Source of the DNA: Cymodocea nodosa
Taxonomy: Eukaryota > Streptophyta > Magnoliopsida > Alismatales > Cymodoceaceae
DNA: 64,000 nt
Direction: 5' to 3'
NCBI GenBank assembly: GCA_036874045.1
Contig: CM072344.1
Location: forward strand, 11,690,501 to 11,754,500
Under the pieces are notes generated by a model. The model was not told where the DNA came from. It saw nothing but the letters and a program-made list of their open reading frames with translations, and ran no database searches. This document shows, one piece after another, positions 4,884-53,553 of this stretch. The first letter of the stretch is position 1. The number at the start of each line of letters is the position of its first letter. The translations under genes and the position numbers were made by a program.

Positions 4884-5538
4884 ATGAGCACATGAATTCA
4901 TTCTCCTAGCACTAAACGATTAGTAAGAACACTTACACAGGATTATTCAACAAAGAGGTGTACTAAAATATTTTGTGAAGTGGACCTTAGCGAAATCCTT
5001 AGGGGTGTAGCTAACCTTTCTTTAAAAGAGAATGAAGATATGGTTGCTCTAGTAGAAAAGCCATTAGGGGAAATTTTGTATCTTAAATTAGTTGATGAAC
5101 CTTCATGTATTCGATTGCCAAACTTTGAGGGAGATAGGTTTGAATTGAAATCTAATTATATTAGTCAATTGTCATACTTCCATGGATTAGAAAGAGAAGA
5201 TGCCTATTATTTCCTTAGAGATTTTAATGAAGTTTATCAAATGATGAAAATGCCAAACATGAGTATTGATGATATTAAACTTAGATATATCCCTTTTGCT
5301 TTAAAAGACACAACTAAGAGATGGTTATATACTCTATTGCCTGATTCAATTTCTACATAGACTGAATTTTGTTCTACTTTTCTAGAAAAATATTATCCAA
5401 CACATCAAATGATTAAAAAGAAAAAGGAAAGTATACTGCATTAAAACAGAATTAATAGCAAGAAGAATTATGCCTAAAAAGTTTACTTGGATTGACACAT
5501 TTATTCCATTTGTTACTACTTTTCAATCATGTTCTTAA
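4884..5538 (+). pseudogene. Gag capsid ORF with internal deletion, joined to the last codons of the F-box protein
   Basis: From ATG 4884 the frame reads into a gypsy capsid (Retrotrans_gag type): ILRGVANLSLKENEDMV, then IKLRYIPFALKDTTKRWLYT. At 5421-5430 (AAAAAGGAAA) it jumps to the C-terminus of the F-box protein, ending FIPFVTTFQSCS and TAA at 5536-5538. In the fuller copy AAAAAGGAAA occurs both in the capsid (22531-22540) and near the F-box end (25633-25642). The missing part is therefore about 1.3 kb of element sequence lost between short direct repeats. Stops inside the retained part (TGA near 4896, TAG near 5358) match TGG codons elsewhere. That this copy still holds the F-box tail shows that the fusion is a family feature. 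Confidence 0.8.
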
Positions 5539-7372
5539 ACTGTGATTCTGTACTTTTAATGTTGTGTGTACTCTGCATTTATTTTTAGAGAAAAAGAAGA
5601 AAGAAAAATTTTAGTTTTTGTTTTATTTTATAAGAAAAAGAAAAGAAAAACAAAATATCAACCCAATTTGTTGGTATCTGTTCTGGGAAACCAACTAACT
5701 TGCTTGTGAGCCACCAAAGGTATAGGAGCCTAGGTTCCACACAAGACACTAAATTAACAATTTATGTTTTGTTATTTTGTTATATATTCTACTTTTATTT
5801 GTGAATGAAAAGTTTTTCAGAATCAAAAATCGAAAGATATTGAAGGAGATACAAAAGAGCAAGGTATGTAATTGATTACTTATCTTGAATTTACATTTAA
5901 ACTCAGTTTGTGGAGTTATTCATTAACTCAACGAATTAAGTTCATTGAGTTAGGTGCTAAGTCAACGAAACAATATTCATGTCTGCTAACAATTACTGTA
6001 TTTACTATAAAATCTTTTACATTGAGGACAATGCAAAATGTAGGTATGGGAGGGGCAAGTAATTAGATTAAAAGCCAAGTAATTTTGTTAATTAGAGGAA
6101 CTAGAATGGTGCTACAAAATTTCTGTAGAAATTGAAAATTTTTTATGAATTTACTGTAACTATCTGATAATTGAGATTGTTAAATTTTTAAGAATTGTAA
6201 TTGCTTGAATGTTATATTTATAATCTTATATAAGATGCTACAAAATTTTACTATTCATACAAATCTAGATATAGTATCTTATGTTTTTGTTGAATTTTAT
6301 GAGTTTAACAGTTTCATGATTTTAAAAAGAAATCAGAATGCTTAATTGAAACTTAGTAAATTATCTGAAATCTTGAAAGAGCTGAAATGTTGATTTTTGG
6401 ATTAAATGAGATGGATATGATCAAAGATACATTTAATTTGATTGATTAAACTTGTAGAATGATTTATGTGTAAATCTTATTAAACTATAGAAAAAGTATG
6501 AGCTTATTGATATGGATTCATATTTTCAGTAAATATTAGAAGCAGGACTATATGAGATTTGTGTTTTATTACATCTGTATTAATGAAATACGTATATATA
6601 TTATGTTGAAAAGAAAAAAAGAGGAAAAAAAGAGAAAAACTTTGAGAGTTTATTGACTTGTTTGATCACGAGTCTTTTGTATTTGAGCAAATAGGTATGT
6701 AAGGATTGTTGACCTAAAAAAGGACTCTTTAAATTTGGCAACCTAAGATCCTAATCAGATTTGGGATTGTTGACTGAAAGCTCAATACATGGGTACTCTA
6801 GAAAGCTCTTGTATGATTCAAGCTTTTCAAATTAACTTTTAAAGTACAAATATGCATATACTGCTCTGAAAAGATAAAAGTGTTTTGTGAAATACAGATA
6901 TCTTTTGAATCGAGTATATTTTCTATTATTTAAGATTATTGAAGTATGAATCTAGAATGGACTTTTGAAGTTGTTTATTTGAGATACAATTCATTATTCT
7001 ACTTGTTTTAATCATAGTGAATTGGATTGTGTTTTGATTCGTATGTAGTTGAAATTTATTTTGGAAGTCATATTGGAAAATTCAGGATAATAGATGTTTG
7101 AAAAGAAGAAAAAATGATAATATAATTAACACCTATGTGATGCGAATATATTTTGTATGTAATTTACATATGTTTTAAATATATTTGTAGGTTGAAGAGG
7201 AGAAAACAAAGTTAAAATAGATTATTGAAAAATTCAGAATATCTATATAGTAATCTAATTTATGTATTCTGAAGAAGAATAAAATGAAGAATTTAGTTCT
7301 AGCACTTTAGAAAGAACCACTAGTTAGATCTTAGTTTGTTAAGGGATTAGCAAAATTTAAGTATGGGGGAAG
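5539..7372 (+). other. Gypsy 3' region with two purine tracts
   Basis: About 1.8 kb without convincing ORFs, collinear with 25751-27555. It holds a conserved block around 5656-5745, a CGAATTAAGTTC-type inverted repeat near 5925-5950, and TTGAGGACAATGCAAAATG followed by GTATGGGAGGGG at about 6022-6056. That last arrangement is often seen after integrase in plant gypsy elements. The purine tract AAGTATGGGGGAAG at 7359-7372 directly precedes the LTR. Short A/T and A/G runs lie near 5580-5650 and 6605-6640. Confidence 0.7.
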
Positions 7373-9417
7373 TGTTTAGAATGAAAAAGTGCATAATATT
7401 AACGCTTAAATGATGGTTATTTGCATAATATTTAGCTTATCATATGAGAATTAAGCCATTATGTTATAATTGCACTGTTATATGCTTTAATGAAAGAATC
7501 TACATAATTTCAGAAAATTAACGTTAATTAAATACATTTTTGAATTGTCAGTAAGTTGTAGGTTTTTAATTCTTAAGTATCCTAATTTTCTGTTATTTCA
7601 GAGAGTTATATTGCATGTACGAGACAGTTATGTTTTAAAATGCTTAAAGAATATTTTATTATTTCTTGGAGTATATGTGTTGAAACTGTAATGCATGACT
7701 TAAGTGAATGTTCGGTAAGTTATCTGCTAACTATCTAAAATGCATCTGAGCATCGAACAGTTACATTTGCAAGTATTCGAAATATCCTTTTATTCATAAA
7801 ACTTATTAAGGACACATGTCGTGATCTAAAAACTTGATTTAAGTGTGATTTTATAATATTAAGCATGATCCATTTTATTTGCATATATTTATATCATGTA
7901 TAGGTGAATAGTAACAACTCGTTGAGTTAGTGTTCTTTTTATTGAAAGATCACGTGTCAACTCGTTGAGTTACAGGTTTAAAGATATAAAAAGATCATGT
8001 GAGAACTCGTTGAGTTATTGAGTAAAAACAGTAAGTCATATATCTGAACTCGTTAAGTTAGATTTATGCACGTGTTGAATTTAAATGCTTTATTATGTTA
8101 TGTGAACTACACATGTATAACTCGTTAAGTTAGCATAATTATACACGTTAAGTTAATGGAATATATACTAAGGTAACGCATTGTGTTAGCAAGCCTATAA
8201 ATTTTTTCTTTATTGCACGTATTTTATAGTTAAATCAACAAAGTAAGTCCATTGAGTTCTTTGTAACTCCACAGACCATTTATTTTCTAATATGTCACTA
8301 TAACAGTTGCAGAAATAGGACATTTGAAGGAAAACCACGGTTACACATATCACGTAGGAATTTACTCATGGAATGAAGAAGAAATCACCATCATTGATAT
8401 GAATGAAGGAAATCCAACTGATCATCTAAGAAGAAGTAATTATTACAGAAAGAAATATAAAAGAAGAGGAGAAAGACAAAGAAAGTGTGTGTAGAGATGG
8501 AGAACCGTGCTAACTGCAGGAAGCATCAGACGTTCCTTGAAGCTCCACATCACCACCAAAATCATTAACCATCGGAGGTCTATGAGGATACTTTCTTGAT
8601 GTCGGGTCGATTCCGAGCCAAACACGGTGACTAACAACCATTAGGAAGAGTGATCATGTCACGGGAAGGGAAGCCATTTTCACCAAGCACTGACTCATAT
8701 CTCAGGAGATCGTAAAGCTTCTAGCCTTGGTTTCGGGTTGATGCCAGTATGCTGAAGAGGAGATCATCTTACAATTCTTGATTCTCGATTCTATAGGGAG
8801 AGGAGGCAAGATTGTAAGTAATTAACTTTTTAGTGGTATAATCGTGTCGCATGTAGTGACAGAAGTTTTTATTGTAAATAGAGATTTTTACATTTCACCT
8901 TTCTTTCATCTTCAAGAACATATTAAAACAAAATTACCAAAGCAACCAATTATCTCTATTTACATTTAGTATTAAAGTGTTGTATTGTTTGTTTTGTATC
9001 GTAATTAATGTTATTATTGTCAGTATTGTGAATGTTTTATGTTTGTTTGATTTAGAAAATAGAAAATAGTTTTATTGTTTACTAAACTTGATTTGTTCCA
9101 AATACTTAAAGATTTTAATGGTTATTGTTTAAAATATCTGAATGTTAGTATTGCTTAATGACAAATCTAATATTTACTAACATTAAAGAGCTTAATTGAT
9201 GTTATTTACATTCTGTGGAACCGCCCAATGGTTGGCTAAATTCCTCTATAAATAGTAGTATTTAATTGGAAAAGAACTAGCTCGTGGAGTTAACTTAAGT
9301 TCACGAGGTCAATCCATTGATTGGAATTAATCTCTAATTTGTGTAAAGGTTTGTTTGTTTACTTCTAAAAGTAATTAGTTATATAAGCATAAAAATAGAA
9401 GTTAACAAACTAATACA
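7373..9417 (+). mobile_element. Athila-type gypsy LTR (copy A)
   Basis: Starts TGTTTAGAATGAAAAAGTGC right after a purine tract and ends near AATACA; about 2045 bp. Other copies start at 27556, 33170, 40741 and 42358. It contains an array of CGTTGAGTTA-type arms at 7914-8190, one with a CACGTG box (7951-7956), and a TATA-like box CTATAAATAG at 9246-9255, which probably marks the transcription start region. A degenerate primer site follows at 9425, so this LTR has element-internal sequence on both sides. Exact 3' end uncertain by some bases. Confidence 0.85.
7914..8190 (+). repeat. Array of AACTCGTTGAGTTA units in gypsy LTR copy A
   Basis: Five or six copies of AACTCGTTGAGTTA or AACTCGTTAAGTTA, spaced about 50-65 bp, several preceded by CACGTG or near variants. 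Each unit is itself a small dyad (AACTC - GTT - GAGTT). Equivalent arrays are in LTR copies at 28000-28180, 33590-33790 and 41150-41370, and in the SIRE-B LTR. Confidence 0.75.
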
Positions 9418-9424
9418 AGTTTTC

Positions 9425-17523: not shown

Positions 17524-18210
17524 GAAGCCTTAATGAAGAAATATAGAGTAAATCACAAAACTGCAACATTATATCATTCGCAAACAAGTGGACAAGTAGA
17601 AAGTGCAAACAAAAAAATTAAGTTAATCTTAGAAAAAGTAGTAAATCCTACTAGAATAGATTAGGCTAATAGATTGATAGATGCACTTTGGGCTTATAGA
17701 ACTACTTATAAGACAAGCTTAGGTATATCACCTTTTAGGCTAGTATATGGAAAAAATTGTCATTTACTAGCTGAAATTGAACATAAAGCTTCTTGGGCAT
17801 TAAAAACTCTGAACACTAATTTAAATCAAGCTGTTGAGAATAGAAAAATACAATTGATTGAATTAGAAGAATTTAGAAATGAAGCTTATTCGAAAACTGT
17901 AAGAGAAAAAGAGAGAATGAAGTTCTAGCATGATAAGAAAATTATTCAAAAAACCTTTAAAATAGGATAAGAAGTATATGTTTACATGACTAGACTCCAT
18001 AACCATCTAAGAAAATTAAGATCTAAATGGGTAGGACCTTACATAATTCAAAATATTTATTCCTATGGAGTTATTGAAATTGAATATCCTAAAAATTAGA
18101 ATATATTTAAAGTAAATGGACAAAAACTTAGACCTATTTTGAAGATACCAAAAAGTTATTTCGAAATTATAGAAGAAGTAAGAGTAGAGGACTACTCAAG
18201 CTTTATTTAG
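17524..18210 (+). pseudogene. Gypsy integrase C-terminal part
   Basis: Aligns with 48678-49362. It covers [20 protein letters not shown] with the catalytic Glu, then DALWAYRTTYKTSLGISPFR, then the C-terminal region VYVYMTRLHNHLRKLRSKW. It ends DYSSFI and TAG at 18208-18210. The first two catalytic Asp residues lie in the missing 5' part, cut off by SIRE-B. Stops include TAG for TGG near 17662, TAG near 17926 (also present in the 49 kb copy) and TAA for Gln near 17970. Confidence 0.85.
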
Positions 18211-18765
18211 TAAGAAAATTTCTAAATATATAGTTTAGTGTCAATGTTACCAAAATATAGTATTGGTTCAACCGATAGAGAGAAAAGAAAAAAACAAAAA
18301 GAAAATTTTTTCAATTCAACCGAGGAATATAACGATTCGACCGAAATTTTAAAATGTTGGAAAATTAAGAGTCGGTTAGACCAGGAATTCTTCAGTCTTG
18401 ATTGAAGTAAAAATTATTATTATAAGTATTTTTATTAGATATAACTTTATGGAAAGTCCGTTGAGTTACACTTAACTCAACAAACTTACTCCGTTGAGTC
18501 TAGGATAAGTTAACGAACTAACCCCGTTGAGTTAACTATAACTCAACGGAGTACTATAGTTAAGTCCACAGACTAAGTCCATGGAGTTAACCGTAATTCC
18601 ACGGATGAGAGAGCAAGAGTATTGCGTGGGAAATGACTCGATTACCCGTTTAAACTTAGGGCTTATTTATACTAAACTTAGGATTTTGGGGCATTATCCG
18701 TAGAATCATTTAGAACTTAGAACAATAGAGATCAGAGCGATTCTATTCCATTTCGTAACTCCACA
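18211..18765 (+). other. Spacer between gypsy integrase and ORF3, with perfect hairpin repeat
   Basis: No coding sequence seen. A TTCAACCGA-type stretch occurs near 18265-18385. A perfect 10-bp inverted repeat, CGTTGAGTTA (18525-18534) - ACTA - TAACTCAACG (18539-18548), is preceded by looser pairs from 18458. A block TTTAGGGCTTATTTATACTAAA... near 18655-18690 is shared by the other spacers (37460, 49835). Confidence 0.7.
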
Positions 18766-21013
18766 ATGAGAAAGATGACACCAGAATTTTGGGAGGACGT
18801 TGTTGACACGTCAGAATTTCTTAAAGATACGGAAGATTGGCACACAAGGTAGAAGATCAGGAATACGATAAGGGAAAAATTGCTACAAAAGTTAGAATCT
18901 AACCTTTTCTACTAGAGGAAAGTGTTAGTAGATTTAGGTATACAAATACCTTAGATTATGGACACAAGAATCAAAGTGACTACGGAAGTTGTTGTAAATA
19001 GAGAAAGACGAATCAAGTCAAATAATGAAGTTGCCCTAGAATTGATCCAATGTAAGTCCCGACTCTGGTTCAAAAGACGTATAGGTAGACGAGCTCAACA
19101 GGCAATTTGGGAGCAACAAAGGAAAGAAAATGAAGAACAGGCAACTAAAGAACAAGAGGAACCGACTACTAAAAGACCTGTCCTTGAGGAATAGCAACCT
19201 AGACCTTTAGTTCCACCACCAAGGCCGTTAGAAAGAGTAGCAATTTTGGGGCCTTCTATTGAGGAAGAATTAAGAGAATTTCAAGAACTGGTTTAAATTG
19301 GAAAAGACCAAGGAGAACCAAAAGAGTTGGCAGTAGCTATAGCACATCTAGTGTTTGATGCACGGTGCAAAAAGAGGGCTACAGAAAAGTTGAAAGCCCA
19401 ATACAAAATTAAAGTTGAATAGCATCAAGAAGTCACTACCAGACCTATTATAAGAGGAGCTGAAGCTGGTCCTTTGAGACCAACAATTATAGAAAAAGTT
19501 AAACAAGAAGAGCCAATACCTGTGGCTTAAAGGCCTGCAGAGCCTATTTTTGTAGATTTAATCTCAGAAGAAGAAGAGGAAGACCAGACACAATTAATTA
19601 GAAGAAGGAAAGAAAAAGAGATAGTGACTGAACATTAAGAAGAGATTAAATTTGAGCAAATATCAATAGGGCCTGTAGAGAAAATTTTTGTAAACTTGCT
19701 ATCTGATTCTAAGGAGGAGCAGGAGCAGTAGTAGCAAGAGCAAAGAGAAGAAGAAAAACAAGCTGAAACTAATCTATAGCTTGTACAAACAAAACAAATA
19801 GAAATTAGGGCAAAAGCTGATTTGCCCGTAACTCCATCCCAATCTACCACAGAATCAGAAAGAACAGTGACAATGCAGATTGGTAGTCAAGAGGAAGAAG
19901 AAAAAGAAGAAACTGAACAAATACAAATGGAACAAGAAAGAAATGACTCGACAAATTCCATTGAAGAGCAAAGAACTCTTCAGCAAATTTTGGAAAGCAT
20001 TCAAGATAGAGTGGAGAGTTTTGCTGGCTCACCACCACAAACAGAAGTAGAAGCAAAAATGTAGGAATCTCTAGAGCATTTTCAGTCTATTCAAGTTCAA
20101 CACATGGAAGAGGAAGTTCAAGAATAAACCCCTCTAGAGGAACAAATTCACATTCCTGACTCGACTGAAGCAACAATTTTGAATGAAGTATACTTTTGAA
20201 GTCAGAAAGCATATAATAAATATCAAGAGATTAGGGGTTATGATATCATATACAGTAGACCAGTAAATTGGGATGGGATGCAAGAAATTAAGGATTTATT
20301 TAAGTTCCAAGGTCTACTATAGTGTATTTCTCAACAAAGAGGGCATGCAGTATATAAGAATCTAGTGCCCTGCTTTTATGCAAACTTAAGAGAAGGAGAA
20401 AGAGGATTAATTTTCAATGTGGAGTAAGTTAATGTATAGATAACACCAAAGTTTCTCCACAACATTTTAGGATTGAAGAATGAAGGACTAGAAATTTTGT
20501 AAAGCACAAATGCAATCGAGTGGACAAAAACAGATAATAAAGGATTGTTTACTTGCTAATCCTAGTGTACAATTATTAAATAGACTGAAGCACTTAAATG
20601 GTAAAGCACACATGATAGCTAACATTTTGATTAAGAATGTCTACCAACGACAAGGCCATGATATAGAACTAAGTCAATTTGTCAAATGGGCCACGTATGC
20701 AGTTGTGAATAGAATTCAGATAAATTGGTCTTCTATTTTTATCTCCAAGTTGAGAATAGTAAAGAAGAAACTATTTTATGGAGATTTAATTCCACTACTG
20801 ATGGTGGACTATATTGACTTCACGAAATGGACATCTAAAAGGATAAAATCAAGAGCCATTTCAGTGAAGAAATACAGAAACTACAATTATGCTGCTGTTG
20901 AGATTGCTGAACCTTCTAGAGGAATTACAAGAGCTATAAAAAGGATAAACCAATTAGAGCAACAATTAGAAAAACTCCAGAAGGAAGTAGATGAACTTAG
21001 GAAGAAAGATTAA
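18766..21013 (+). pseudogene. Gypsy ORF3: plant transposon-type domain protein with leucine zipper (copy at 18.8 kb)
   Basis: From ATG 18766: N-terminus MRKMTPEFWEDVVDTSEFL, then a long Glu/Gln-rich acidic middle with repeated LIRRRK..KEIV and FVNLLSDS units. Next come YDIIYSRPVNWDGMQEIKDL, FYANLREGE and LHNILGLKNEG, then HMIANILIKNVYQRQGHDIE and FVKWATYAVVN. A coiled-coil tail (INQLEQQLEKLQKEVDELRKK) ends in TAA at 21011-21013. About 750 codons in all. In-frame stops are mostly TAG/TAA for Gln; TGA near 20197 replaces TGG; one frameshift lies near 20530-20540. Three full copies exist in the window. Position after integrase is where Athila elements carry an env-like ORF, but I see no membrane segment here. 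Function unknown. Confidence 0.8.
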
Positions 21014-21997
21014 ATTGTATTGTTCATCTACTTGTATTTATTTATATGAAAAATATCTGATTGATTGTAATGTAAATTATTCATATAAATGAATGTATGT
21101 TTTTCAGATGTTTTTGCATTCATGTTTGAGAATGATGTAATGGATGAACTATCTTGAATATTATATAATTGTTTGAATAAGATGCAAGACTGTTTAAAAG
21201 ATTTATAAATTTGCTGAATGACAAGATTAAATGCAAGATAACTGGTTAATGCTTGAAAATATCTACATGTTGCAAAGTAAAATGTAAATTCTACATAACA
21301 TGAAATGAACTGCAAGTTAAATATACATATCATGATCAGATTTAAATGAGTTTTAATTAGAACACTGTAGTAATGACATGTATTTAACTTTATTTAAGTT
21401 GACAAAATGTAGGAGAGAAAAAAAATATAGAAGTGAATACGAGGAATAAGTTTTAGAAATTTCCCAAGTGTTAACTCAACGAAGTAAGTTCGTTGAGTTA
21501 ACCTTAACTCCATGAGGTCAATAATATAATATAAGGTCACTTCGTTAAGTTATCTGTAACTCAACGAAGTTAGTCCGTGGAGTTAGCAACAGTAATTGAA
21601 GCTAGTCCGTTGAGTTAACTGTAACTCAACGAGGTTAGTTTGTGGATTAAGCTAAACAGTTATTCTTTTAGCCACGAACGAAACTTCGTGGGTTTAGCGG
21701 TTATTGAAATTTGAAATTAGAAGTGGAACACGTACCCATAAAAATAGGAACCACACTACATGTTACAAGACACGTTCTTGTAATGAGATTCATTTGCTTT
21801 ATGGATGTGCATTATAAATATAGAATAGCATATTATTTACGAGTTACGAGCACTTTTGAAAGAAAAGAAAATTCATTGGGGAATTGGAAGGAGAAGCAAC
21901 TGATTCAACTTCATCCGTCAACAACTATTTATTGAAAACAAAGCTTCAGACTGGTATATAATTAATCTTCTGCTATTTTACTTTATGTTAAGAGTTT
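21014..21997 (+). promoter_or_regulatory. Spacer between ORF3 and capsid-F-box ORF, with hairpins and a TATA-like box
   Basis: Non-coding. Inverted repeats: AACTCAACGAAG..TTCGTTGAGTT near 21475-21500, a pair near 21541-21569, and a perfect CGTTGAGTTA (21608-21617) - ACTG - TAACTCAACG (21622-21631). TATAAATA at 21813-21820 is 185 bp before ATG 21998, as in the 4.7 kb copy. An internal promoter for the 3' ORF is the inference; leader-internal hairpins could also act in RNA. Confidence 0.55.
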
Positions 21998-22782
21998 ATG
22001 AGTACATGGATTTGTTCTCCTAGCACTAAATGATTAGTAAGAACACCTACATAGGATTACTCAACACAGAGACATACTGAAATATTTTCTGAATTGGACT
22101 TTAACGAAATCCTTAGAGGTGTAGCTAACCTTTCTTTAAAAGAGAATGAAGATATGGCTGCTCTAGTAGAGAAACCATTAGGGGAGATTCTGTATCCTGA
22201 ATTAGTTGACAAACCTTCATGTATTCGATTGCCAAACTTTGAGGAAGATAGGATTGAATTGAAATCTAATTATATTAGTCAATTGCCACATTTTCATGGA
22301 TTAGAAAGAGAGGATGCCTATTATTTCCTTAGATTAACAAAGTTTGTCAAATGATGAAAATGCCAAACATGAGTATAGATGCTATTAAATTTAGATATAT
22401 CCCTTTTGCTTTAAAAGACACAGTTAAGAGATGGTTATATACTCTCTCACTTGATTCAATTTCTACATGGATTGAATTTTGCTTTGTTTTTCTGGAAAAA
22501 TATTATCCAACACATCAAACGATTAAAAAGAAAAAGGAAATATTAATGTGTAGCCAAAAACAAGGAGAATCATTTTGGAAATATTTTGAAAGATTTAAAG
22601 ATTTACTAACTCAATGCCCACATCATGCTATGAGTAAAGCACAATTAATAGGTATAATTCATGAAGGCATAGATGTTTCAACAAAATCTTTATTAGAATC
22701 TACTTGTCAAAATGGATTTTTAAAACTATGTAGTGAAGAAGCATGGGCATATTTAGAAAACTTTGCAAAAAGAACTACATAG
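21998..22782 (+). pseudogene. Gag capsid domain, 5' part of a capsid-F-box ORF
   Basis: From ATG 21998 (MSTWI...), the text matches the plant gypsy capsid (Retrotrans_gag type): LRYIPFALKDTVKRWLYTL, EFCFVFLEKYYPTHQTIK, then WKYFERFKDLLTQCPHH and SEEAWAYLENFAKRTT. This corresponds to the usual capsid through to the (Y)QW end, with TAG in place of the Gln at 22780-22782. A TGA (near 22031) and a TAG (near 22052) are CGA and CAG in the 4.9 kb copy. A 4-bp loss near 22333 shifts the frame. In all other Ty3/gypsy elements I know, capsid is at the 5' end upstream of protease. Here it lies after integrase and ORF3, and it is not followed by a zinc knuckle but by an F-box protein in the same frame. 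Confidence 0.85.
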
Positions 22783-22970
22783 TGGGAAAACTCAACTGAA
22801 GCTATTACAGAATCACAATAGATGGAATTGATGAAATTACCACTAGATGCACTAAGAGAAGTACTAAGTAACTTATCAGCTAAAGATCTATGCAGATTAT
22901 GTTGTGTATCAAAGGAAATCAAAGATTGTGTCAAAGAAAATTATTTTCATGGATTACAAGTTGCAAAAAT

Positions 22971-24757
22971 TGATAGGATCGATAAGCTCACTAGAGGGGG
23001 GTGAATGGTGAAAGTGTGTAGTTTTAAAATTCTTTTAATGTTGAATCAAATGATTCAACAGAAATGTAATGAGATGAAACTAATATAATGCAAATCAATA
23101 GAGATAAGAGACACACAACAAATTTTTAGGTGGTTCACCAATTTGGCTAGTCCACCCCCAAGATTCACTTGGGCTTCACTAAGTGTTTCAACACTTACAC
23201 ACTTGCTTTCAGGTCAAAGCAAGAACCAACTACACAGAAGTTTTTAGGTAAAAACTTTAGTAAACCAACCTCTAGAGTTTTCAGGTCGAAACTCAAACCA
23301 ACACAATATGTAGCTTTCAGGTTGAAGCCACGAACCAACAGCTTTAAACCTTCAATCAGAGTTTTGGCGCAAGAGCTTTTTCTGCAATAGATCTTCTGAA
23401 TATTATTCACTGTTTGCAGACTTGAGTATCAATGGAATTGGAGTGTAGCTCACTGTATATCTCTCTTGTATGTCCGTTGTCTATATTTTGAATATATACT
23501 TGATATGTACAACAATCATATTTTCCTCCAACGGATGTATTCTACTGTACTTGATTAGGATCAAGTCCCAATACGGCAAGTGACTGTTCAGAAAAATGTT
23601 TCAAGATATCTTACTGATTTTCCTGTTCTTTCGAATAGTTATCTATGCAACTCTCCGAAGAGTAACTATAACTCACCGAAAGATCACTTATCCTTTACTG
23701 CTAGGTAGGATTCTAGAATATTTAAATGTGAGCTGTCATCAAATCGGATACTTATAACTGTAACTCACTGAACAGTTATATACTTGACTCTGTCAACTTT
23801 ATGATTTAATTTAGCACGTGCATAAAAGGCTGACTTAAGTTTCGAAAGGTTATCCCTATAACTCACTGAAATTCTTTAGTATTTCGGATAGTTATTTTTC
23901 TAACTCTCCAAAAACTTATTTGAGCCACTGTGTGAAATTCTGCACGTGGGAAATTCAATGACTTAAGTTTCGGATGGTTAAACTATAACTCACCGAAACT
24001 CTTTTGAAATTTCGGATAGTAATCTTTCTAACTCTCCAAAAACCCATTTGAGCATCTGTCTGGATTTCTGCACGTGGGAAATTCATTGACTTAAGTTTCG
24101 GATAGTTAAATTGTAACTTACCGAAACTCTCTTTGAAATTTCGGATAGTTATCTAACTCTCTAATTTTCCCATTTAAACTTTCAACGGTCGGCTTCTCCA
24201 TTTTGCACGTGTGTAATAAAATGACTTAAGTTCCAGAAAGTTATGCTTGTAACTTACCGAAAAACTCGAATAGTTATCTAACTCTCCGAAAAGGAAACTC
24301 GGATAGTTATCTAACTCTCCGACAAGTCTTTTCTCCTTCCGTTCTGAATTTCTGCACGTGGTTTATTGAATGACTTAACTTTCGGATAGTTATACCTGTA
24401 ACTCTCCGAAAAGTCCTTTAAGCTTCCGGATAGTTATCTCCTTTACTATCCGATCATTTAATCCCTTTAACTATCTAATTAAATAACTCTCCGAAGGCTT
24501 TGTAAAATCGGATAGTTATTCTTCTAATTGTCCGGTAGCAGTGCTGCTGCTTTAAACTTGCTCTTTAGATACTTAGACCTATAACTGTCCAATTTTGCTG
24601 AATCTTCTTGATCTGTTCATCTGGAACCTTCTTGATCTTTTCATCTACATGGAAATTGTTCTAACAGCTTTCTAATCTAATGAGTAAGACATAACTGTGA
24701 AATACAATATGTTTCCTCACATAAGTTTTGCATTATCAAAATACTCGGGTTCTAACA
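22971..24757 (-). mobile_element. Solo LTR (Sirevirus-like, minus strand) with perfect 5-bp target duplication
   Basis: On the plus strand it begins TGATAGGATC and ends GGGTTCTAACA; on the minus strand that is TGTTAGAACCC ... GATCCTATCA. Length 1787 bp. AAAAT at 22966-22970 is repeated at 24758-24762. The minus-strand 3' end has ATTCACCCCCCTCTAGTG, typical of Sirevirus LTR ends. The block around 23130-23350 holds three loose TTTCAGGT(C/T) ... ACCAAC repeats. From 23630 to 24560 there are many CGGATAGTTA / TAACTCTCCG arms. The internal region is gone, as expected after recombination between two LTRs. Confidence 0.9.
23630..24560 (-). repeat. CGGATAGTTA / TAACTCTCCGAAA arm array in solo LTR
   Basis: About ten inverted pairs of the type TTTCGGATAGTTA - loop - TAACTCTCCGAAA, for example 24380-24412 (one mismatch). 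Each pair is near a TGACTTAAGT and often a GCACGTG(G/T). Spacing is roughly 90-130 bp. Confidence 0.75.
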
Positions 24758-25750
24758 AAAATGACTAAGATTAGAGATGGATTTTTATTGAAGTCATTTA
24801 ATCGTAGTTCAATCCACTATGAATATCTGAATATGGAAGAAACTATTGGAATTCCACCCAATACATTAGAAGGAATAGATCATATTATGAGGATGGGTGA
24901 AGGATTAATTATATACAGAATCAAACCAAGGTATGCAATTCTGTTACCCGACATTTTGGTTAAAAATCTTATCACAAGAGAAGAATGGAATATAGGAAGG
25001 CCTAATAGATTTGAAGTACCAACTGAAAATTGTGGGTTAGCTTTAATATTTTCTGATAAAAATTTGACCATTCCTGAAAAATTATATTATTGGAGACCAA
25101 CTAGAAATTGGGATGAAGATTTATGCTTAAGTGTATATAATTTTTGGAATAGAACTTGGACTGAAAATACTATGATATATCTAGGATAGAAAGCATTAAT
25201 TAACAACATGCATGTCATACTTGATGGATATATATATCTAGTCACAGATATATCAATTGCATTTAGATCTGATTTATACATAGTAAGCATAGACAGTTAT
25301 GATGATTTTATAGAAATATTACCTATACTAAGTGATATAGCTAAACCACCATCTTCAAAATATGATAAAATTTAATTAGAAATGTGGTATAATGAATATG
25401 ATGATCCTACTTTATGTTTGATAAGATGGTGGGATGAATTGAGGAAATTTCAAATATGGATTATGAAAGACCTAAATGAATGGAAGTGGGAAGAAGATTA
25501 TATTGAAATAGATGTAGAAATAGAAATAGCTACATTATCTTGGAACAGAAGAGGATCCCTTTCTACATTTCATTTCATTAATGGTAATACACTTATATTT
25601 AGCATTGATAACATACTACAAGTCTACAAACTAAAAAGGAAAATGGACTGCATTAAAACAGAATTAATAGCAAGAAGAATTATGTCTAAAAAGTTTGCAT
25701 GGACTAACACATTTATTCCATTTGTTACCACTTTTCAATCATGTTCTTAA

Positions 25751-27555
25751 ATTATAATTCTGTGTTTTTAATGTTGTGTGTATTTTGCATTTATTTTTAG
25801 AAAAAATTTTAGTTTTAGTTTTATTTTATAAGAAAAAAAAATATATATATCAATCTAGTTTGTTGGTATCTGTTTTGGGAAACCAACTGGCTTGCTTGTG
25901 AGCCACCAAAGGCATAGGAGCCTGGGTTCCACACAAGACAATGATTTAACAAGTTATGTTTTGTTATTTTGTTATATATTCTACTTTTATTTGTGAATGA
26001 AAAGTTTTTTAGAATAAAAAATTAAAAGATATTGAAGGAGATACAAAAGGATAAGGTATGTAATTGATTACTTATCTTGAATTTACATTTAAACTCAGTT
26101 CATGGAGTTATTCATTAACTCAACGAATTAAGTTCGTTGAGTTAGACACTAAGTCAGTGAAACAATATTCATACTTGCTACAATTACTGTATTTATCGTA
26201 AAATCTTTTACATTGAGGATAATGCAAAATGTAGGTATGGGGGGGAGGTAATTAAAGTAACAACCATGTAATTTTGTTAATTAGAGGAATTAGAATGGTA
26301 CTGCAAAAGTTCTGTGGAAATTGAAATTTTTTTTTTATGAATTTACTGTAACTATCTTATAATTGAAACTGGAAAATTTTTAAGAACTATAACTACTTGA
26401 ATGTTATATTTATAATGTTATATAAGATGTTATAGAATTTTACTATTCATATAAATCTAGATATAGTATCTGATGCTTTTGCTGAATTTTATGAGTTTAA
26501 CAGTTTCACGATTTTAAAAAGAAATTAGAATGCTTAATTGAGACTCAGTAAATTATCTTAAATCTTGGAAGAGCTGAAATGTTGATTTTTGGATTAAATG
26601 AAATACATATGATCAACGATACATTTAATTTGATTGATTAAACTTGTAGAATGATTTATGTGTAGATCTTATTAAACTACAGAAAAAGTATGAGCTTATT
26701 GATATGGATTCATATTTTCAGTAAATAATAGAAGCAGGACTATATGAGATTTGTGTTTTATTGCATCTGTATTAATGAAATATATATATATATTGTGAAA
26801 AAAAAAAAGAGAGAAAAAAGAAAACTTTGAGAGTTTATTGACTTGTTTGATCACGAGCCTTTTGTACTTGAGCAGATAGGTATGTAAGGATTGTTGACCT
26901 GAAAAAGGACTCTTTAAATTTGACAATTTAAGATCCTAATCAGATTTGGGATTGTTCACTAAAAGCTCGATACATGGGTACACTAGAAAGCTCTTGTATG
27001 ATTCAAGCTTGTCAAATTAACTTTTAAAGTACAAATATGCATATACTGTTCTAAAAAGATAAAAGTGTTTTGTGAAATACAGATATCTTTTGAATTGAGT
27101 ATACTTTTTGTTATCTAAAACTACTGAAGTATGAATCTAGAATAGACTTTTGAAGTTGTTTATCTGAGATACAATTCTTTATTCTACTTGTTTTAATCAT
27201 ATTGAATTGGATTGTGTTTTGATTCGTATGTAGTTAAAATTTATTCTAGAAATCATATTGGAAAATTCAGGATGACAGATGCTGAAAAGAAGAAAAAAAT
27301 GATAATATAATTAACACCTATGTGATGCTAATGTATTTTGTATGTAATTTACATATGTTTTAAATATATTTGCAGGTTGAAGAGGAGAAAACAAAGTTAA
27401 AACAGATTACTGAAAAATACAAACTATCTATAAAGTAATCTAATTTATTATTCTGAAGAAGAACAAAAGGAAGAATTAATTTTAGCACTTTAGAAAGTCC
27501 AACTAGTTAGATCTTAGTTTACGAAGGGACTAGTAAAATTTAAGTATGGGGGAAG
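25751..27555 (+). other. Gypsy 3' region (copy of 5539-7372)
   Basis: Collinear with 5539-7372 and without a convincing ORF. It holds the conserved block near 25855-25945, an inverted pair AACTCAACGAATTAAGTTCG near 26118-26137 with GTTGAGTTA following, ATTGAGGATAATGCAAAATG with GTATGGGGGGGAGG (about 26213-26250), an A-rich run near 26798-26820, and the purine tract AAGTATGGGGGAAG at 27542-27555 directly before the LTR. Confidence 0.7.
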
Positions 27556-29527
27556 TGTTTAGAATGAAAAAGTGCATAATATTAATGGTTAAATGATGGT
27601 TAATTGCATAATATTTAACTTATCATATGAGAATTAAGCCATTATGTTATAATTGCACTGTTATATGCTTTAATGAAAGAATCTGCATAATTTCAGGGAA
27701 TTAAGGTTAATTTAGTACATTTCTGAACTATCGGTGAATTGCAAGTTGTGAAATTCTTAAGTATCCAAATTTTCTGTTATTTCAAAGAGTTATATTGCAT
27801 GTACTAGACAGTTATGTTTTTAACGATAGCAGAATATTTTATTATTTCCTGGAGTACACATGTTGAAATCTTAATACATGACTTAAGTGGATTTTCGGTA
27901 AGTTATCTGTTAACTATCCGAAATGCATCTGGGCATCAAATAGTTTGGTTCGTAAGTGTCCGAATTATCTGAACTTGTCAAGTTAGAATTATGCACGTGT
28001 TAAATTTAAATGCTTTAGTATATCATGTGAGATGCACATGTTTAACTCGTTAAGTTAGCATAACTGTACGTGTTGAGTTACATGACTACATACTAAGGTA
28101 ACACGTTATGTTAGCAACTTATTTCTTTATTGCACGTGTTTTATAGTTAAATCAATGAAGTAAGTCCGTTGAGTTATCTGTAACTCCACGGACCATTTAT
28201 TTTCTAATATGTCACTGTAGCGGTTACAGAAATAGGACAATCGAAGGAAAACCACGATTGCATGTATCACGTAGGAATTCACTCGTGGAAGGAAGAAGAA
28301 ATCACCATCGTTGATATGAATGAAGGAAATCCAACCGATCACCTAAGCAGAAGCAGTTACTACAGAAGAAATATAAAAGAAGAGGAGAAAAAATGAAGAA
28401 AGTGTGGTTCGCTGTGTGTGTAGAGGTGGAGGACTACGATAACTACAGGCAGCATCGAAAGTTCACTGAAACATCCACACCATCACCAAAAATCACCATA
28501 ATCACCAACCATTGGAGGTCTTTGAGGATACTTTCCTAATGTCAGGTCAATTCTGAGCTAAACATGGTCCTTGACAGCCACTGTAAGGAGTGATTGCGTC
28601 ATGGGAAGGGAAGCCATTTTCATCAAGCACCAACTCATATCTTAAGAGATCGTAAAGCTTCTAGCCTTGGTTTCGGGTTGATGCCAGTATGTTGAAGAGA
28701 TCATCTTGCAATTCTGGACTCACAATTCTATAGGGAGAGGAGGTAGAATTGTAAGTGATTAAGTTTTCAATGGTGTAATCGCGTTACATGTAGTGACAGA
28801 AGTATTTACTATTAATAGAGATTTTTACATTTCACCTTTCGCCCATTTTCATGAACACATCAAAACAAAAATACCAAAAACAACAACTTATCTGTGTTTA
28901 TATTTAGTATTTAAGTGTTGTATTGTTTGTTTTGTATCGTGAGTAATGTTATCATTGTCAATATTGTGAATGTTTTATGTTGTTTGATTCAAAAAGATAG
29001 AAAAAAGTTTTATAGTTCACTAAAATTGATTCGTTCCAAATACTTAAAGATTTTAATGGTTACTGTTTGAAATATCTAAATGTTAGTGTTGCTTAATGAT
29101 AAATCTAATATTAACTAGTTTTAAAGAGCTTAATTGATGTTATTTACAATCTGTGGAACCACCCAATGGTTGGTCGAATTCCTCTATAAATAGTAGTATT
29201 AAACTAGAAAGATAGACTCGTGGAGTTAACTTAAGTCCACGAGGTTAGTCCGTTGAGTTAGCCATAACTTCACGAACTTGGTCTGTTGTGTTAATTGTAA
29301 TACAACGGAGTGCTTACTAAACACATAAATTCCATTATTAAAACCGGAATAGTACACAATTCTTACTCAATCTCTATGGGATCGACCTGTACTTGCACAC
29401 AAATACAATATACACTATGCACTTGCAGTTAAAATACAAATTGGAATTAATATCTAATTTGTGTGAAAGTTTGTTAGATTAGTTCTAAAAGTAATTATTG
29501 ATATAAGCCTAAAGACAAATTAAACCA
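27556..29527 (+). mobile_element. Athila-type gypsy LTR (copy B)
   Basis: Starts TGTTTAGAATGAAAAAGTGC after the purine tract; ends near AATTAAACCA, about 1970 bp. TATA-like CTATAAATAG at 29184-29193. Arm arrays at about 27895-28190 and 29220-29310. The 30 bases after it (29528-29560) match the leader after LTR copy A but lack the primer-site core, so this LTR too is followed by a piece of leader, cut off where Tork sequence starts. Confidence 0.8.
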
Positions 29528-33169: not shown

Positions 33170-35139
33170 TGTTTAGAATGAAAAAGTGCATAATATTAAC
33201 GGTTAAATGATGGTTAATTGCATAATAATTAGCTTATCATATGAGAATTAAGCCATTATGTTATAATTGCACTATTATATACTTTAATGAAGGAATTTGC
33301 ATAATTTCAAAGAATTAGCGTTAATTTAGTACATTTCTGAACTATCGATGAATTATAGGCTTTGAAATTCTTAAGTATCTGAATTTTCTATTATTTCGGA
33401 GAGCTATGTTTAATGTATCGGACAGTTATATTTTTAACGATAGAAGAATATTTTATTATTTCTTGGGTTACACTTATTGAAACTTTAATGCATGACTTAA
33501 GTGGATTTTCAGTAAGTATCTACTAACTATCCGAAATGCATATGGGCATCGAATAGTTAAGGTTTGTAAGTATCCAAAATATCTGAACTCGTTAAGTTAG
33601 ATTTATGCACATGTTGAATTTAAATGCTTTATTATGTCACGTGAGATGCACATGTTTAACTCGTTAAGTTAGCATAACTATACGCATTGAGTTACATGAA
33701 TACACACTAAGGTAAAGCGTTATGTTAGCAACTTATTTCTTTATTGCACGTGTTTTATAGTTAAATCAACGAAGTAAGTCCGTTGAATTATCTGTAACTC
33801 TACGAACCATTTATTTTCTAATATGCCACTATAGCAGTTATAGAAATAGGACATTCGAAGGAAAACCACGATCCCACGTATCACGTAGGAATTCACTCAT
33901 GGAAGGAAGAAGAAATCACCTTCGTTGATATGAATGAAGGAAATCTAACCGATCATCTAAGTAGAAGCAGTTACTATAGAAAGAAATATAAAAGAAGAGG
34001 AGAAAAACAAAGAAAGTGTGTGTGTAGAGGTGGAGGACCGCGCTAACTACAGGAAGCGTCGGAAGTTCCCTGAAGTTCCACACCACCACCAAAATCACCA
34101 ACCATCGGAGGTCTATGAGGATACTTTTCTGATGTCGGGTCGATTTCGAGCCAAACATAGTGCTTGACAACCATTGTGAGGAGTGATCATGTCGCGGGAA
34201 GGGAAGCCATTTTCACAAAGCACTGACTCATATCTTAGGAGATCGTAAAGCTTCTAGCCTTGGTTTTGGGTTGATGCTAGTATGCTGAAGAGGAGATCAT
34301 CTTATAATTTTGGATTCACGATTCTATAAGGAGAGGAGGTAGAATTGTAAGTGATTAAGTTTTCAGTGGTGTAATTGTGTCGCATGTAGTGACGAAAGTT
34401 TTTAATGTCGATAGAGATTTTTACATTTCACCTTTCGCTCATCTTCAGGAACATATCGAAACAAAAATACCAAAAACAACAAATTATCTGTGTTTACATT
34501 TAGTATTAAAGTGTTGTATTGTTTGTTTTGTATCGTGATTAATATTATCAATGTCAACATTGTGAATGTTTTATGTTTGTTTGATTCAGAAATAGAAAAT
34601 AGTTTTACAGTTTACTGAAATTGATTTGTTCCAAATACTTAAAGATTTTAATGGTTACTATTGGAAACATCTGAATGTTAGTATTGCTTAATGATAAATC
34701 TAATATTAACTAACATTAAAGAGCTTAATTGATGTTATTTACAATCTGTGGAATCGCCCAATGGTTGGCTAAATTTCTTTGTAAATAGCAATATTTAATT
34801 GGAAAGATAGGCTCGTAGAGTTAATGTAAGTCCATGAGGATAGTCTGTTGAGTTAGCCATAACTCCAAGAACTTAGTCCATTGTGTTAACTGTAACTCAA
34901 CGGAGTGTTTAACTGAACACACATAAACTCCAATATAAAAATCGAAACAGTACACAATTCATACTCAATCTCTATGGGATTGACCTATACTTGCACACAA
35001 ATACAATATATACTATGCACTTGCAGTTAAAGGCACAAATTGGATTTACTATCTAATTTTTGTGAAAGGTTGTTTGTTTACTTCTAAATGTAATTATTTA
35101 TATAAGCAAGTTTAAGAATTAACTTAACAACCCTAAACA
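33170..35139 (+). mobile_element. Athila-type gypsy 5' LTR (copy C)
   Basis: TGTTTAGAATG at 33170 to about ...AAACA at 35139, about 1970 bp. Inserted in Sirevirus integrase; the five bases before it are GTTAC. The TATA region is decayed (TTTGTAAATAGC near 34780). A degenerate primer site and the gypsy leader follow, so this is the 5' LTR of the element at 35147-40367. Confidence 0.85.
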
Positions 35140-35245: not shown

Positions 35246-36994
35246 ATGGCATATGCTTATGCTCAAAGATTTCTGAAACCTGTAGTTAGTATATGTGAAT
35301 TCTGTAATTTGGAAGGTCACAACATCTCTAATTGTTTGAAACTAAGACGATTGCAGATGGTTAGAACAAATGAACAACAAATGAATTATATTCAATATAA
35401 TAGAGTTGAGTATGAGAATCCTATAGTTCACCCAACTAATGGTCAGTTTAGAATGTGTAATATGTTGAAAGACAAAGAAGTTTGGGATAGATATGATAGA
35501 CTGAAGCGTAGCCTAGAGCAAAACATGGACAAATTGGAACAATACATGTGGCAGCAACAAGAAGTCAACCAATTAAACTATAGGGAAGAATATATAGAAC
35601 CTAACATTGATATCATTTACGAAACTGAAAAAACCATAATGAAAATTGATCAAAAATTGAATGCAATGAGATTAGATAATTTGGAAAGAAAATTAAAAGC
35701 ATTGGACAAATTTATAATGAAATTACAAGTTATACAACAGGAAAACACAAATGAAAACTTTAATGTTACAAATTTGCATAATTTGCAAGACATATAGACA
35801 AAAGAAAATACTAATGCAATAGAATTTAAAGAATGCAATTTAAAACTAAAAATAGTTGAAGATCATAATCACGAAAATGAAATACAAGAACATCATGGAA
35901 GTAATGAAAATCTAGAAGATGTATGTATAACATTAAGATCTGGAACTAATATACCATCAAGAATTCAAAAAGAAAATAATATGAAGGTGGATAAGAACAA
36001 AATTCAAAATGATAATGAAAATGTAATATCTGAAAACGTAGAAATCACTAAAGAAAAATCTGAATCTAAAAATGAGACTAAAAATTATTAGACAAATGAA
36101 ATGAAAGAAAAAGAATCTTGTAAATCACAATCATTAGCACCCTATCTTGACATATTACAACAAACATTTCCTAAAAAGCAAGAAAAAATTAGAGAAATTT
36201 TTGAAAAAGTACAAGTTAACATTCCTTTGTTAGACTTATTGTAGAAAATGTCACCTTATGCTAAATTTCTTAAAGATTGGTGTACTAAGAAAAGAAAGCG
36301 AAAAGTTTTAAGGAAATTCTTTTTAGCTGAGCAAAGTAGTTCCCTATTTTTGCCACAAATTCCTAAAAAGTTATCTGATCTTAGAATCCCTGTTATATCA
36401 TGCACCATAGGAAATACTATTCTAGAAAGAACCTTAATAGACCTAGGTGCAGGTATAAATGTTATGCTGAGTGATATATTTGCATCCTTAGGATTGGAAG
36501 GCTTAATCCCTACTAGGATTGTTATTCAATTAGTTGATAGAAGTATAAGATACCTTAGAGGAAAAATAGAGAATGTCTTAATTAAAATCAAAAACTTCAT
36601 ATATCCTATTAATATTGTAATTTTGGATTCCCAACAAATTAAGCATCAAAATCATAATACATCTTTAATTTTGGGAAGGCCATTCTTAGCAACATCAGGG
36701 GTTGTTATAAATTATAAAACTGAAGTGATGAAGTTAGCATATGGTAATGAGGATAGTCAATTGAACATTTTCAAACTAGAAAAGTTTGGGCAATTAGAAA
36801 TGTCCTTACATACTATAGACTTTTTAGAGGATGAAGGAGATATGCTAGATGATGTGATTCAAGAAGAACTAAATAGGCAACTAAATTCTGAAAATTTAGG
36901 AGAAAGTGAAAGCATAAATGTAGAAGAAGATCAAGAAGAGATTAATATAAAAGATGAAAATGTTCAATTAGGAGCTCTAGCTTCTAATGGGTAA
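35246..36994 (+). pseudogene. Gypsy 5' ORF: zinc knuckle plus protease, no capsid; RT-RH-INT deleted (copy at 35 kb)
   Basis: One frame from ATG 35246 (MAYAYAQRFLKPVVS). A CCHC zinc knuckle (CEFCNLEGHNISNC, 35294-35335) follows within 20 residues of the start, so no room is left for a capsid. Next comes a charged, coiled-coil-like linker, then the protease region ERTLIDLGAGINVMLSDIF (Asp of DLGA) and LILGRPFLATSG. Stops: TAG 35795, TAG 36089, TAG 36241 and TAA 36992; where comparable, the 44.7 kb copy has CAG or CAA. After about 37028 the sequence jumps to the spacer after integrase, so about 3 kb of RT, RNase H and integrase is lost. It could only move with help from an intact relative, if at all. 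Confidence 0.85.
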
Positions 36995-44511: not shown

Positions 44512-44602
44512 AGTTTTTCTGGTGCTTTGCTGGAGATCCAAACAAGTTTTTCAAGTATCATGCTGGGTAACCGAACAAGTTTTATGGCGCCGTTGCCGGG
44601 GA
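44512..44602 (+). repeat. 33-bp tandem repeat ending in the tRNA-Asp primer binding site
   Basis: Three units starting at 44512, 44545 and 44578, each AGTTTT... ; the first two end in CCAAACA and CCGAACA. The third contains the intact primer site TGGCGCCGTTGCCGGGGA at 44585-44602; the first two hold decayed forms (TGCTTTGCTGG, ATCATGCTGGG). A GAATT repeat (about 44601-44655) follows directly. Confidence 0.75.
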
Positions 44603-53511: not shown

Positions 53512-53553
53512 AGACACAATTCACCCCCCTCTTGTGATACAGACGATCCTACA
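53512..53553 (+). mobile_element. SIRE-A 5' LTR stub (last ~42 bp)
   Basis: AGACACAATTCACCCCCCTC ... CGATCCTACA ends at 53553 and matches LTR ends at 3558, 13078 and 17523. More than 1.1 kb of LTR is lost. At the junction the gypsy capsid and the LTR both carry AAAGACACAA, which may have guided the join. Confidence 0.85.

What the first reader, a model, noticed from the sequence alone, without database searches (positions are those of the whole stretch)
21998..25750. Gag capsid fused in frame to an F-box protein, as a 3'-terminal ORF of a gypsy retrotransposon
Seen: the capsid text (LRYIPFALKDTVKRWLYTL to FAKRTT) and the F-box text (LPLDALREVLSNLSAKDL) are in one frame, separated only by two TAG codons at likely Gln positions. 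The frame continues after removal of the solo LTR through an F-box-associated-like region to TAA 25750. The tail of the same protein is present at 5431-5538 in a second copy, so the fusion was there before the copies spread. Known: F-box proteins bring targets to SCF ubiquitin ligases. Inferred: the element captured a host F-box gene and made it part of Gag. I know of no described retrotransposon with this layout.
Basis: partly seen in the sequence, partly recalled or inferred. Interest (0 to 1): 0.92.

Follow-up and report, generated by a model that had tools for sequence, protein, structure and literature searches.

The report
Retrotransposon splicing out capsid for F-box
A very abundant plant jumping gene carries a gene for a protein-destruction adaptor (an F-box protein) as its last gene, apparently reaches it by splicing its own capsid gene out of the RNA, and keeps that capsid gene at an unusual place near the far end of the element; the capsid-F-box fusion first reported looks like a deletion in one damaged copy.

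Summary
The sequences are real: a gag capsid domain (Retrotrans_gag, E 3.6e-17) and an F-box (E 3.5e-12) share one frame at 21998-25750. The fusion is not supported. In 16 of 19 other genomic copies capsid and F-box lie 711-764 bp apart; gag runs on to its own stop and the F-box ORF has its own ATG. The window copy lost that stretch at a 6-bp microhomology.

What stands is larger. An Athila-like Ty3/gypsy element has the order LTR-PBS-NC-PR-RT-RNaseH-INT-ORF3-capsid-F-box-PPT-LTR. The capsid ORF lies downstream of integrase; the zinc knuckle opens the 5' ORF. The F-box ORF (375-379 codons) is open in 10 of 10 copies picked for openness. Between two subfamilies 22 of 45 fixed differences are synonymous, 12.1 expected (P=0.0006).

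Forty of 40 scored loci match contiguously across a junction that joins GT..AG sites, removes the capsid ORF and brings up the F-box ATG. Eleven such copies need 11 origins on a (weak) tree.

Likely mechanism: unspliced RNA gives capsid, spliced RNA an SCF adaptor against a host factor. The target is inferred.

The parts
21998..22805 (+). capsid part of the 3' gag ORF, window copy 2 (ATG 21998; frame break near 22333)
   Evidence: Pfam Retrotrans_gag 3.6e-17 on 22357-22779; about 89-93% DNA identity to other genomic copies
22804..22811 (+). deletion joint: about 740 bp present in other copies (rest of gag, gag stop, gap, acceptor side) are missing here
   Evidence: shared TACAGA
22822..22970 (+). 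F-box ORF, first part, from its own ATG 22822
   Evidence: Pfam F-box 3.5e-12; same start in other copies
22971..24757 (+). later insert into the F-box ORF, TG...CA, with AAAAT at 22966-22970 and 24758-24762; solo-LTR-like
   Evidence: other copies have F-box and tail contiguous
24758..25750 (+). F-box ORF, C-terminal part (FBA-like), TAA 25750; premature stops at 25187 and 25373 in this copy
   Evidence: FBA_1 E 0.0012 (19.2 bits, cut-off 21.1) in copy L008
21813..21820 (+). TATA-like box about 180 bp upstream of the capsid ATG
   Evidence: TATA-like in 12 of 13 aligned copies, lost in L027; candidate only
21954..21959 (+). 5' splice site (GTATAT here, GTATGT in the other aligned copies)
   Evidence: GT kept in 13 of 13 aligned copies; end of exon 1 in spliced copies
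22811..22821 (+). first bases of exon 2 (AATCACAATAG) before the F-box ATG; the intron side of the acceptor is deleted here
25751..27544 (+). 3' non-coding region of the element
   Evidence: 90% to copy 1
27545..27555 (+). polypurine tract TATGGGGGAAG
27556..29520 (+). 3' LTR of copy 2 (starts TGTTTAG; end approximate)
17524..21539 (+). integrase end and ORF3 region of the same copy
   Evidence: matches E4 48679-49369 and 49626 onward, and E3 37052-40347
4872..7372 (+). copy 1: capsid fragment, deletion joint near 5421-5430, F-box protein tail 5431-5538, 3' region, PPT
7373..9424 (+). LTR of copy 1, followed by a PBS-like stretch
33170..35139 (+). 5' LTR of copy E3 (TGTTTAG...CTAAACA)
35246..35797 (+). 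start of the 5' ORF of E3: zinc knuckle CEFCNLEGHNISNC, no capsid before it
42358..44580 (+). 5' LTR of copy E4 (end approximate)
44585..44602 (+). primer binding site TGGCGCCGTTGCCGGGGA
44719..49300 (+). NC-PR-RT-RNaseH-INT of E4
   Evidence: RVT_1, RT_RNaseH, Integrase_H2C2, rve; protease below cut-off
49786..52200 (+). ORF3 region of E4
53104..53508 (+). capsid ORF start of E4, cut off by a nested copia element

Best explanation
This is a very abundant Athila-like Ty3/gypsy retrotransposon with two unusual traits. (1) Gag is split and permuted: the zinc-knuckle part opens the 5' ORF with protease-RT-RNaseH-integrase, while the capsid part is a separate ORF downstream of integrase and ORF3. 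(2) A plant-type F-box gene, probably captured, is the last ORF. Capsid ORF and F-box ORF form a splice switch: the capsid ORF lies in a roughly 1.6-kb GT..AG intron, so an RNA that keeps the intron can give capsid and an RNA that loses it brings the F-box start forward. Shown: the layout, the junction in many copies, scattered origin of gag-less copies, open F-box ORFs, an excess of synonymous older changes in the F-box ORF. Inferred: the RNA starts (LTR or an internal TATA-like box), and that the F-box protein binds SKP1/ASK, forms an SCF ligase and removes a host protein that limits the element, most likely of the silencing machinery. Copies decay after insertion; the window's 'fusion' is one such accident.
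For: Layout: capsid-gag end-gap-F-box-tail contiguous in 10 of 10 flanked copies (all found with the F-box query), LTR next in 9 of 10. One copy (C1:5266k) shows partial 5' LTR, PBS, NC, PR, RT, INT, ORF3, capsid, F-box, 3' LTR in order; its LTRs agree at 566/616. PBS-leader-NC contiguous in 40 of 40 scored loci, the window's included, 2936 candidates. Knuckle intact at the 5' end in 3 of 6 copies, one Cys replaced in 3; none in three forward frames of the capsid-to-gap stretch of 14 copies. Copies: 150 of 150 scored loci match the 247-aa F-box query at E<=6e-141, 5979 candidates; by my count 48 of 150 have no stop inside, 17 of these with open frames of 378-422 aa. 10 of 10 copies picked from the latter are open over 375-379 codons. 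Selection: (22 of 45 synonymous, 12.1 expected, P 0.0006; subfamily B is a clade with support 0.999); informative sites in 8 open ORFs 25/18/41 by codon position. Splicing: CAGACTG|GTATGT ... TATACAG|AATCACAACAGATG in unspliced copies; the joint displayed in 9 of 12 spliced copies; 40 of 40 scored loci contiguous across it; 11 changes for 11 spliced leaves. L015 carries ORF3 upstream of the TATA-like box.
Against: No transcript was seen; all splicing evidence is genomic. In an RNA that starts in the LTR, as that behind L015 seems to have, neither capsid nor F-box is the first ORF; the switch needs the internal start or a further splice, and the internal start is only a motif. Pairwise dN/dS among recent copies is like wrong frames and non-coding DNA (F-box 0.48; controls 0.38-0.76), although a simple neutral simulation gave 0.71-0.93. 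Codon positions vary equally in all copies, and changes private to L041 fall 25/11/17. Stops recur at the same codons (97, 125, 160, 182, 259): hot spots, or spread of copies with a broken F-box ORF; TAG at codon 160 is the majority state in subfamily B. FBA_1 is below its cut-off; no homologue among proteins or PDB chains. Most rows have a stop at the end of capsid. Tree branches are short and weakly supported. The copies were found by an F-box query, so how many family members lack the F-box is unknown.
Confidence: 0.55

Rival explanations
1. One reading: capsid and F-box are one Gag fusion protein.
For: One frame with two stop codons in window copy 2.
Against: 16 of 19 other loci have 711-764 bp between them with a gag stop and about 220 bp before the F-box's own ATG; microhomology deletion in the window copy.
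Confidence: 0.03
2. The F-box gene is a passenger: a host gene captured once and copied along, of no use to the element.
For: Recent copies decay neutrally; many copies with broken F-box frames exist; transduced host genes are known in plant LTR elements (PMC7264820, part 1 of 3 read).
Against: Excess of synonymous fixed differences between subfamilies and of third-position informative sites; splice sites that bring up the F-box ATG.
Confidence: 0.27
3. The F-box protein acts on the element itself (turnover of Gag or Pol, copy-number control) rather than on a host defence.
For: One intron makes capsid and F-box alternatives.
Against: No data on targets; the FBA-like region has no known ligand.
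Confidence: 0.15
4. The permuted order is an artefact of tandem elements that share an LTR, the true element being capsid-first.
For: Tandem remains exist (C8:6222k).
Against: Canonical PBS directly followed by NC in 40 of 40 scored loci, PPT directly before the LTR behind the F-box, one copy with both ends.
Confidence: 0.06
5. Gag-less copies arose by one deletion that then spread, not by splicing.
For: The tree is weak; at least 40 loci share the junction.
Against: The ends fall at GT and AG; 11 spliced leaves need 11 changes, shuffled mean 9.6.
Confidence: 0.1

Closest known systems
Athila lineage of plant Ty3/gypsy (OTA clade), with 3' extra ORFs such as the env-like ORF
   Same: PR-RT-RNaseH-INT order, PBS TGGCGCC.., extra ORFs downstream of integrase; splicing reported for the env-like ORF of barley Bagy2 (PMC7264820, part 1 of 3 read)
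   Different: Capsid is downstream of integrase and the 3'-terminal ORF is an F-box gene. The survey PMC6317226 (passages and section 13 read) classifies 8453 elements as Ty3/gypsy with order GAG-PROT-RT-RH-INT (GAG not identified in 159) and removed elements with unexpected domain order as likely mispredicted
Retroviral env expression by splicing (recalled)
   Same: 3' ORF reached by removing upstream coding sequence as an intron
   Different: The intron holds the capsid ORF, and the product is an F-box protein
F-box proteins of plant viruses: crinivirus p22 (PMC6784205, title and start of abstract in the listing); polerovirus P0 and nanovirus Clink (recalled); host F-box protein FBW2 that targets AGO1 (PMC9035678, start of abstract in the listing)
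   Same: F-box or F-box-like motif in a genetic parasite of plants (p22, P0, Clink)
   Different: Here an F-box with a plant FBA-like region in an LTR retrotransposon; target untested
TE-F-box fusions in nematodes (PMC12062965, passages read)
   Same: Meeting of F-box genes and transposons
   Different: There F-box genes captured a transposase HTH domain; here the transposon carries the F-box gene

Membership tests
Ty3/gypsy LTR retrotransposon | RT-RNaseH before integrase, protease upstream | tested here: met
   RVT_1, RT_RNaseH, Integrase_H2C2, rve in that order in 46864-49005; aspartyl protease upstream only at E 2.2e-4, 22.3 of 24.3 bits
Ty3/gypsy LTR retrotransposon | LTRs with PBS and PPT | tested here: met
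Ty3/gypsy LTR retrotransposon | GAG-PROT-RT-RH-INT order | tested here: not met
   capsid after INT and ORF3; no capsid between PBS and NC
Athila clade | RT/RH/INT phylogeny | not tested
   no reference set on hand; called Athila-like from recalled motifs and layout
Athila clade | no additional RNase H (aRH marks Tat, PMC6317226) | tested here: inconclusive
   no second RNase H listed by Pfam in 46864-49005; no aRH model searched
F-box protein (SCF adaptor) | F-box domain | tested here: met
   E 3.5e-12, 9.5e-10, 2.3e-11 in three copies
F-box protein with FBA domain | FBA_1 over cut-off | tested here: inconclusive
   19.2 of 21.1 bits in L008:2063-2650, nothing in L011:1892-2650 nor in the window's pieces
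F-box protein (SCF adaptor) | binds SKP1/ASK | not testable with these tools
   needs an experiment
spliced retroelement | precise GT..AG junction | tested here: met
   (genomic copies, not RNA)

The most novel reading that the evidence does not exclude
A successful retrotransposon lineage that broke Gag in two, moved capsid to the far end of its genome, and put it in competition with an SCF adaptor through one intron, so that splicing of each RNA decides between building particles and dismantling a host defence; spliced RNAs themselves are packaged and inserted, seeding the genome with gag-less copies that still encode the adaptor.
Probability: 0.35. Interest if true: 0.92.

Novelty: new variant of a known kind. 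Interest (0 to 1): 0.82.

Why it matters
Capsid before protease and RT is taken as the rule in LTR elements, to the point that a large survey discarded elements with another order (PMC6317226). Here a family of probably thousands of copies (5979 first-look candidates, 150 of 150 scored confirmed) breaks the rule, so such elements may be filtered out elsewhere. An F-box gene kept under constraint would be an LTR retrotransposon with a ubiquitin-ligase adaptor of its own, a handle on how elements get past plant silencing. The splice switch would be a simple way to balance Gag and accessory protein.

Tried and rejected
Rejected: Gag-F-box fusion; one host gene hit by an element (150 of 150 scored loci match); tandem artefact. 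Not supported, not excluded: the 900 bp between ORF3 and capsid as an old LTR; all 12 local scores beat 40 shuffles, but the two alignments printed lie in a repeated motif.

Led nowhere: protein searches (one search gave one ordinary gag, P0001; none); PDB (no credible match); structure prediction (job lost at 46; tool off at 52). Pairwise dN/dS of recent copies: no signal against frame controls, though below a simple simulation. FBA_1 in the genome: none of 31 candidates, tool's controls silent too. The F-box family search of the genome did not complete, so no host donor gene was found. Papers: among the titles listed none describes this layout (open-licence papers only; 31 and 126 listed none).
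Full report
The observation. The window is plant-like, AT-rich DNA full of nested LTR elements. In the frame of 22333 a capsid domain runs to FAKRTT, then TAG, twelve codons, TAG, and then LPLDALREVLSNLSAKDL. Pfam finds Retrotrans_gag (E 3.6e-17) and F-box (E 3.5e-12) in the two pieces. A 1.8-kb TG..CA insert with AAAAT on both sides interrupts the F-box protein. Its tail ends at TAA 25750; the tail, the following 1.8 kb, the PPT and the LTR recur behind capsid in copy 1 (5431 on).

The fusion is an accident of this copy. The window lies in a 374.6-Mb assembly of 28 contigs. A 241-base query over the joint gave 41 matches, most of them only to the F-box half (22806-22970). Of 19 other loci (L002-L020), 16 have capsid and F-box 711-764 bp apart. 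That stretch continues gag for about 185 codons (QWENS..NWRNHPNLSWRNNN..; open as one piece of 186 aa in L006), ends in a TGA kept in the aligned copies, and then has about 220 bp before the F-box ATG. Eleven loci were displayed; in 9 both ORFs can be read, with the F-box in another frame in 7 and in the same frame but behind stops in 2 (L007, L011). Gag is broken by stops in all but short pieces of these copies. Three of the 19 loci differ: L012 (internal deletion), L019 (ORF3 joined to the gap) and L015 (spliced). The window's joint falls in TACAGA, shared by both sides.

Order of the element. I took flanks of ten copies found with the F-box query. In 10 of 10, capsid, gag end, gap, F-box and tail follow one another; in 9 of 10 the 3' region and LTR follow, and in the tenth (C19:6665k) an inverted copy interrupts. 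The copy at C1:5266k shows in one place: partial 5' LTR, PBS TGGCGCCGTTGTCGGGGAC, knuckle ORF, protease, RT (with a nested LTR), RNaseH-integrase, ORF3, leader, capsid, gag end, gap, F-box, tail, 3' region, LTR. Its LTRs agree at 566 of 616 positions. The window's E4 shows LTR, PBS at 44585, knuckle ORF at 44719, pol, ORF3, capsid at 53104. A query over PBS, leader and knuckle matched contiguously in 40 of 40 scored loci, the window's own included (2936 candidates); it was chosen to span that joint, so this shows that the joint is common, not that no other exists. The knuckle CX2CX4HX4C is intact in 3 of 6 copies and has one Cys replaced in 3; it is absent from three forward frames of the first 1500 bases (capsid to gap) of 14 oriented loci. 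An ordinary gag, P0001, has capsid, QWEN and a Cys/His stretch in one protein. Here that protein is divided and its halves stand at opposite ends. My inference is duplication of gag, or passage through a tandem, with loss of opposite halves.

The F-box ORF. A 247-aa query gave 5979 first-look candidates, of which 150 were scored, the query's own locus included; all 150 match over more than 240 residues at 84-100% identity. By my count of that table 48 of 150 have no stop inside and 17 of these have open frames of 378-422 aa. I fetched ten of the 17: in 10 of 10 the frame is open to the TAA over 375-379 codons (the printed list gives lengths for the 8 with an exact MELMK start, the other two follow from the printed frames). 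The F-box domain is found in three copies. The C-terminal part reaches FBA_1 at E 0.0012, 19.2 bits against a cut-off of 21.1, in one copy only. No relative was found among proteins or solved structures, in a protein library that seems poor in plants.

Selection. Among recent copies there is no clear sign: codon positions vary equally, and the pairwise ratio for F-box (0.48) is like capsid (0.44), wrong frames (0.38-0.76) and non-coding DNA (0.51-0.67). A simple star-tree simulation gave 0.71-0.93 for the F-box ORF, but since non-coding DNA also falls below that I do not lean on it. Changes private to L041 fall 25, 11, 17 by codon position. Older shared changes do show constraint. Between 17 copies of one subfamily and 7 of another (6 intermediate copies left out), 45 differences are fixed at 70% or more: 13, 8 and 24 by codon position, 22 synonymous against 12.1 expected from the same changes placed at random (P 0.0006). 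The second group is a clade with support 0.999. In 8 open ORFs parsimony-informative sites fall 25, 18, 41, all segregating sites 75, 69, 78. Against this, several premature stops recur at the same codon, and one (codon 160) is the majority in the second subfamily, so some lineages may spread without an intact F-box ORF.

Splicing. L015 and L064 lack gag altogether. In unspliced copies GCTTCAGACTG|GTATGTAATTAAT lies about 44 bp upstream of the capsid ATG and TTTATGTTATACAG|AATCACAACAGATGG before the F-box ATG. In L015 and L064 the joint has the length of the predicted product and differs from it by a few substitutions. GT is kept in 13 of 13 aligned copies, AG in 12 of 15 by my reading. Of ten copies tried, both ends were matched in four, with introns of 1593-1610 bp. 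A 261-base query across the joint matched contiguously in 40 of 40 scored loci on many contigs, at 86-92% apart from its own locus (5034 candidates; the search favours such matches, so this is no share). Ten more were fetched: in 7 the joint was displayed, exact in L073 but for the C/T of the codon before the ATG, with substitutions in the others; in 3 my pattern missed it (L068, L071, L074). On a tree of 48 F-box sequences, 11 spliced leaves need 11 changes against a shuffled mean of 9.6 (one spliced row dropped for gaps, 12 leaves of unknown state left open; supports are weak). So the spliced copies do not form a lineage; spliced RNA seems to have been reverse-transcribed again and again. 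L015 also carries ORF3 upstream of the TATA-like box, so its RNA began further upstream, presumably in the LTR.

How it most likely works. A TATA-like box is present in 12 of 13 aligned copies about 180 bp before the capsid ATG. In the one copy looked at, the only ATG in the 170 bases before the splice site lies 17 bases after the start of that box, upstream of where an RNA from it would be expected to start. In such an RNA capsid is the first long ORF without splicing, and with splicing the F-box ATG comes first. Use of splicing for a 3' ORF is as in retroviral env (recalled) and as reported for Bagy2 (PMC7264820, part 1 of 3 read). The F-box should link a substrate to SKP1-cullin. The best parallel is F-box proteins of plant viruses that act against silencing (p22, PMC6784205, title and start of abstract; P0 and Clink recalled). 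The target here is not known.

Known or new. A survey classifies 8453 elements as Ty3/gypsy with the order GAG-PROT-RT-RH-INT, could not identify GAG in 159 of them, and removed elements with unexpected order as likely mispredicted (PMC6317226, passages and section 13). Its main text does not mention F-box, nor does that of the Retand paper PMC11963269. Among the titles listed by the paper searches none describes such an element; they cover open-licence papers only. I call it a new variant of a known kind.

Noticed in passing
G000 C2:8752969-9714509: 11 F-box ORF copies with a single TAA each; 5 of the 10 gaps between them are 59-63 kb: a long-unit tandem array.
   Followed up: no
window 22780-22782 and loci L002-L020, L042: 13 of 16 rows have a stop (TAG 12, TAA 1) at the same codon between capsid and the rest of gag, Gln in 3; hot spot of C-to-T decay or a real stop.
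   Followed up: partly
L027, L042 (C8:6222k): Two head-to-tail elements with the stretch from the gap to NC2 missing between them.
   Followed up: partly
window 1-2492 and 61493-63999: Second repeat family (83% alike) with ORFs that look like ORF3 by eye; an ORF at 14709 weakly matches Transposase_32, E 0.012.
   Followed up: no
window 53509-60012: Nested copia element cuts the capsid ORF of E4.
   Followed up: no
LTRs, leader and gap of the copies seen: Motifs TAACTCAACGAA / TTCGTTGAGTTA and TAACTATCCGAAA repeated in non-coding parts, often as inverted pairs.
   Followed up: no
whole genome G000: No FBA_1 match at 1e-3 in a 374-Mb plant-like genome; the tool's controls were silent too, so this may be a limit of the search.
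   Followed up: no
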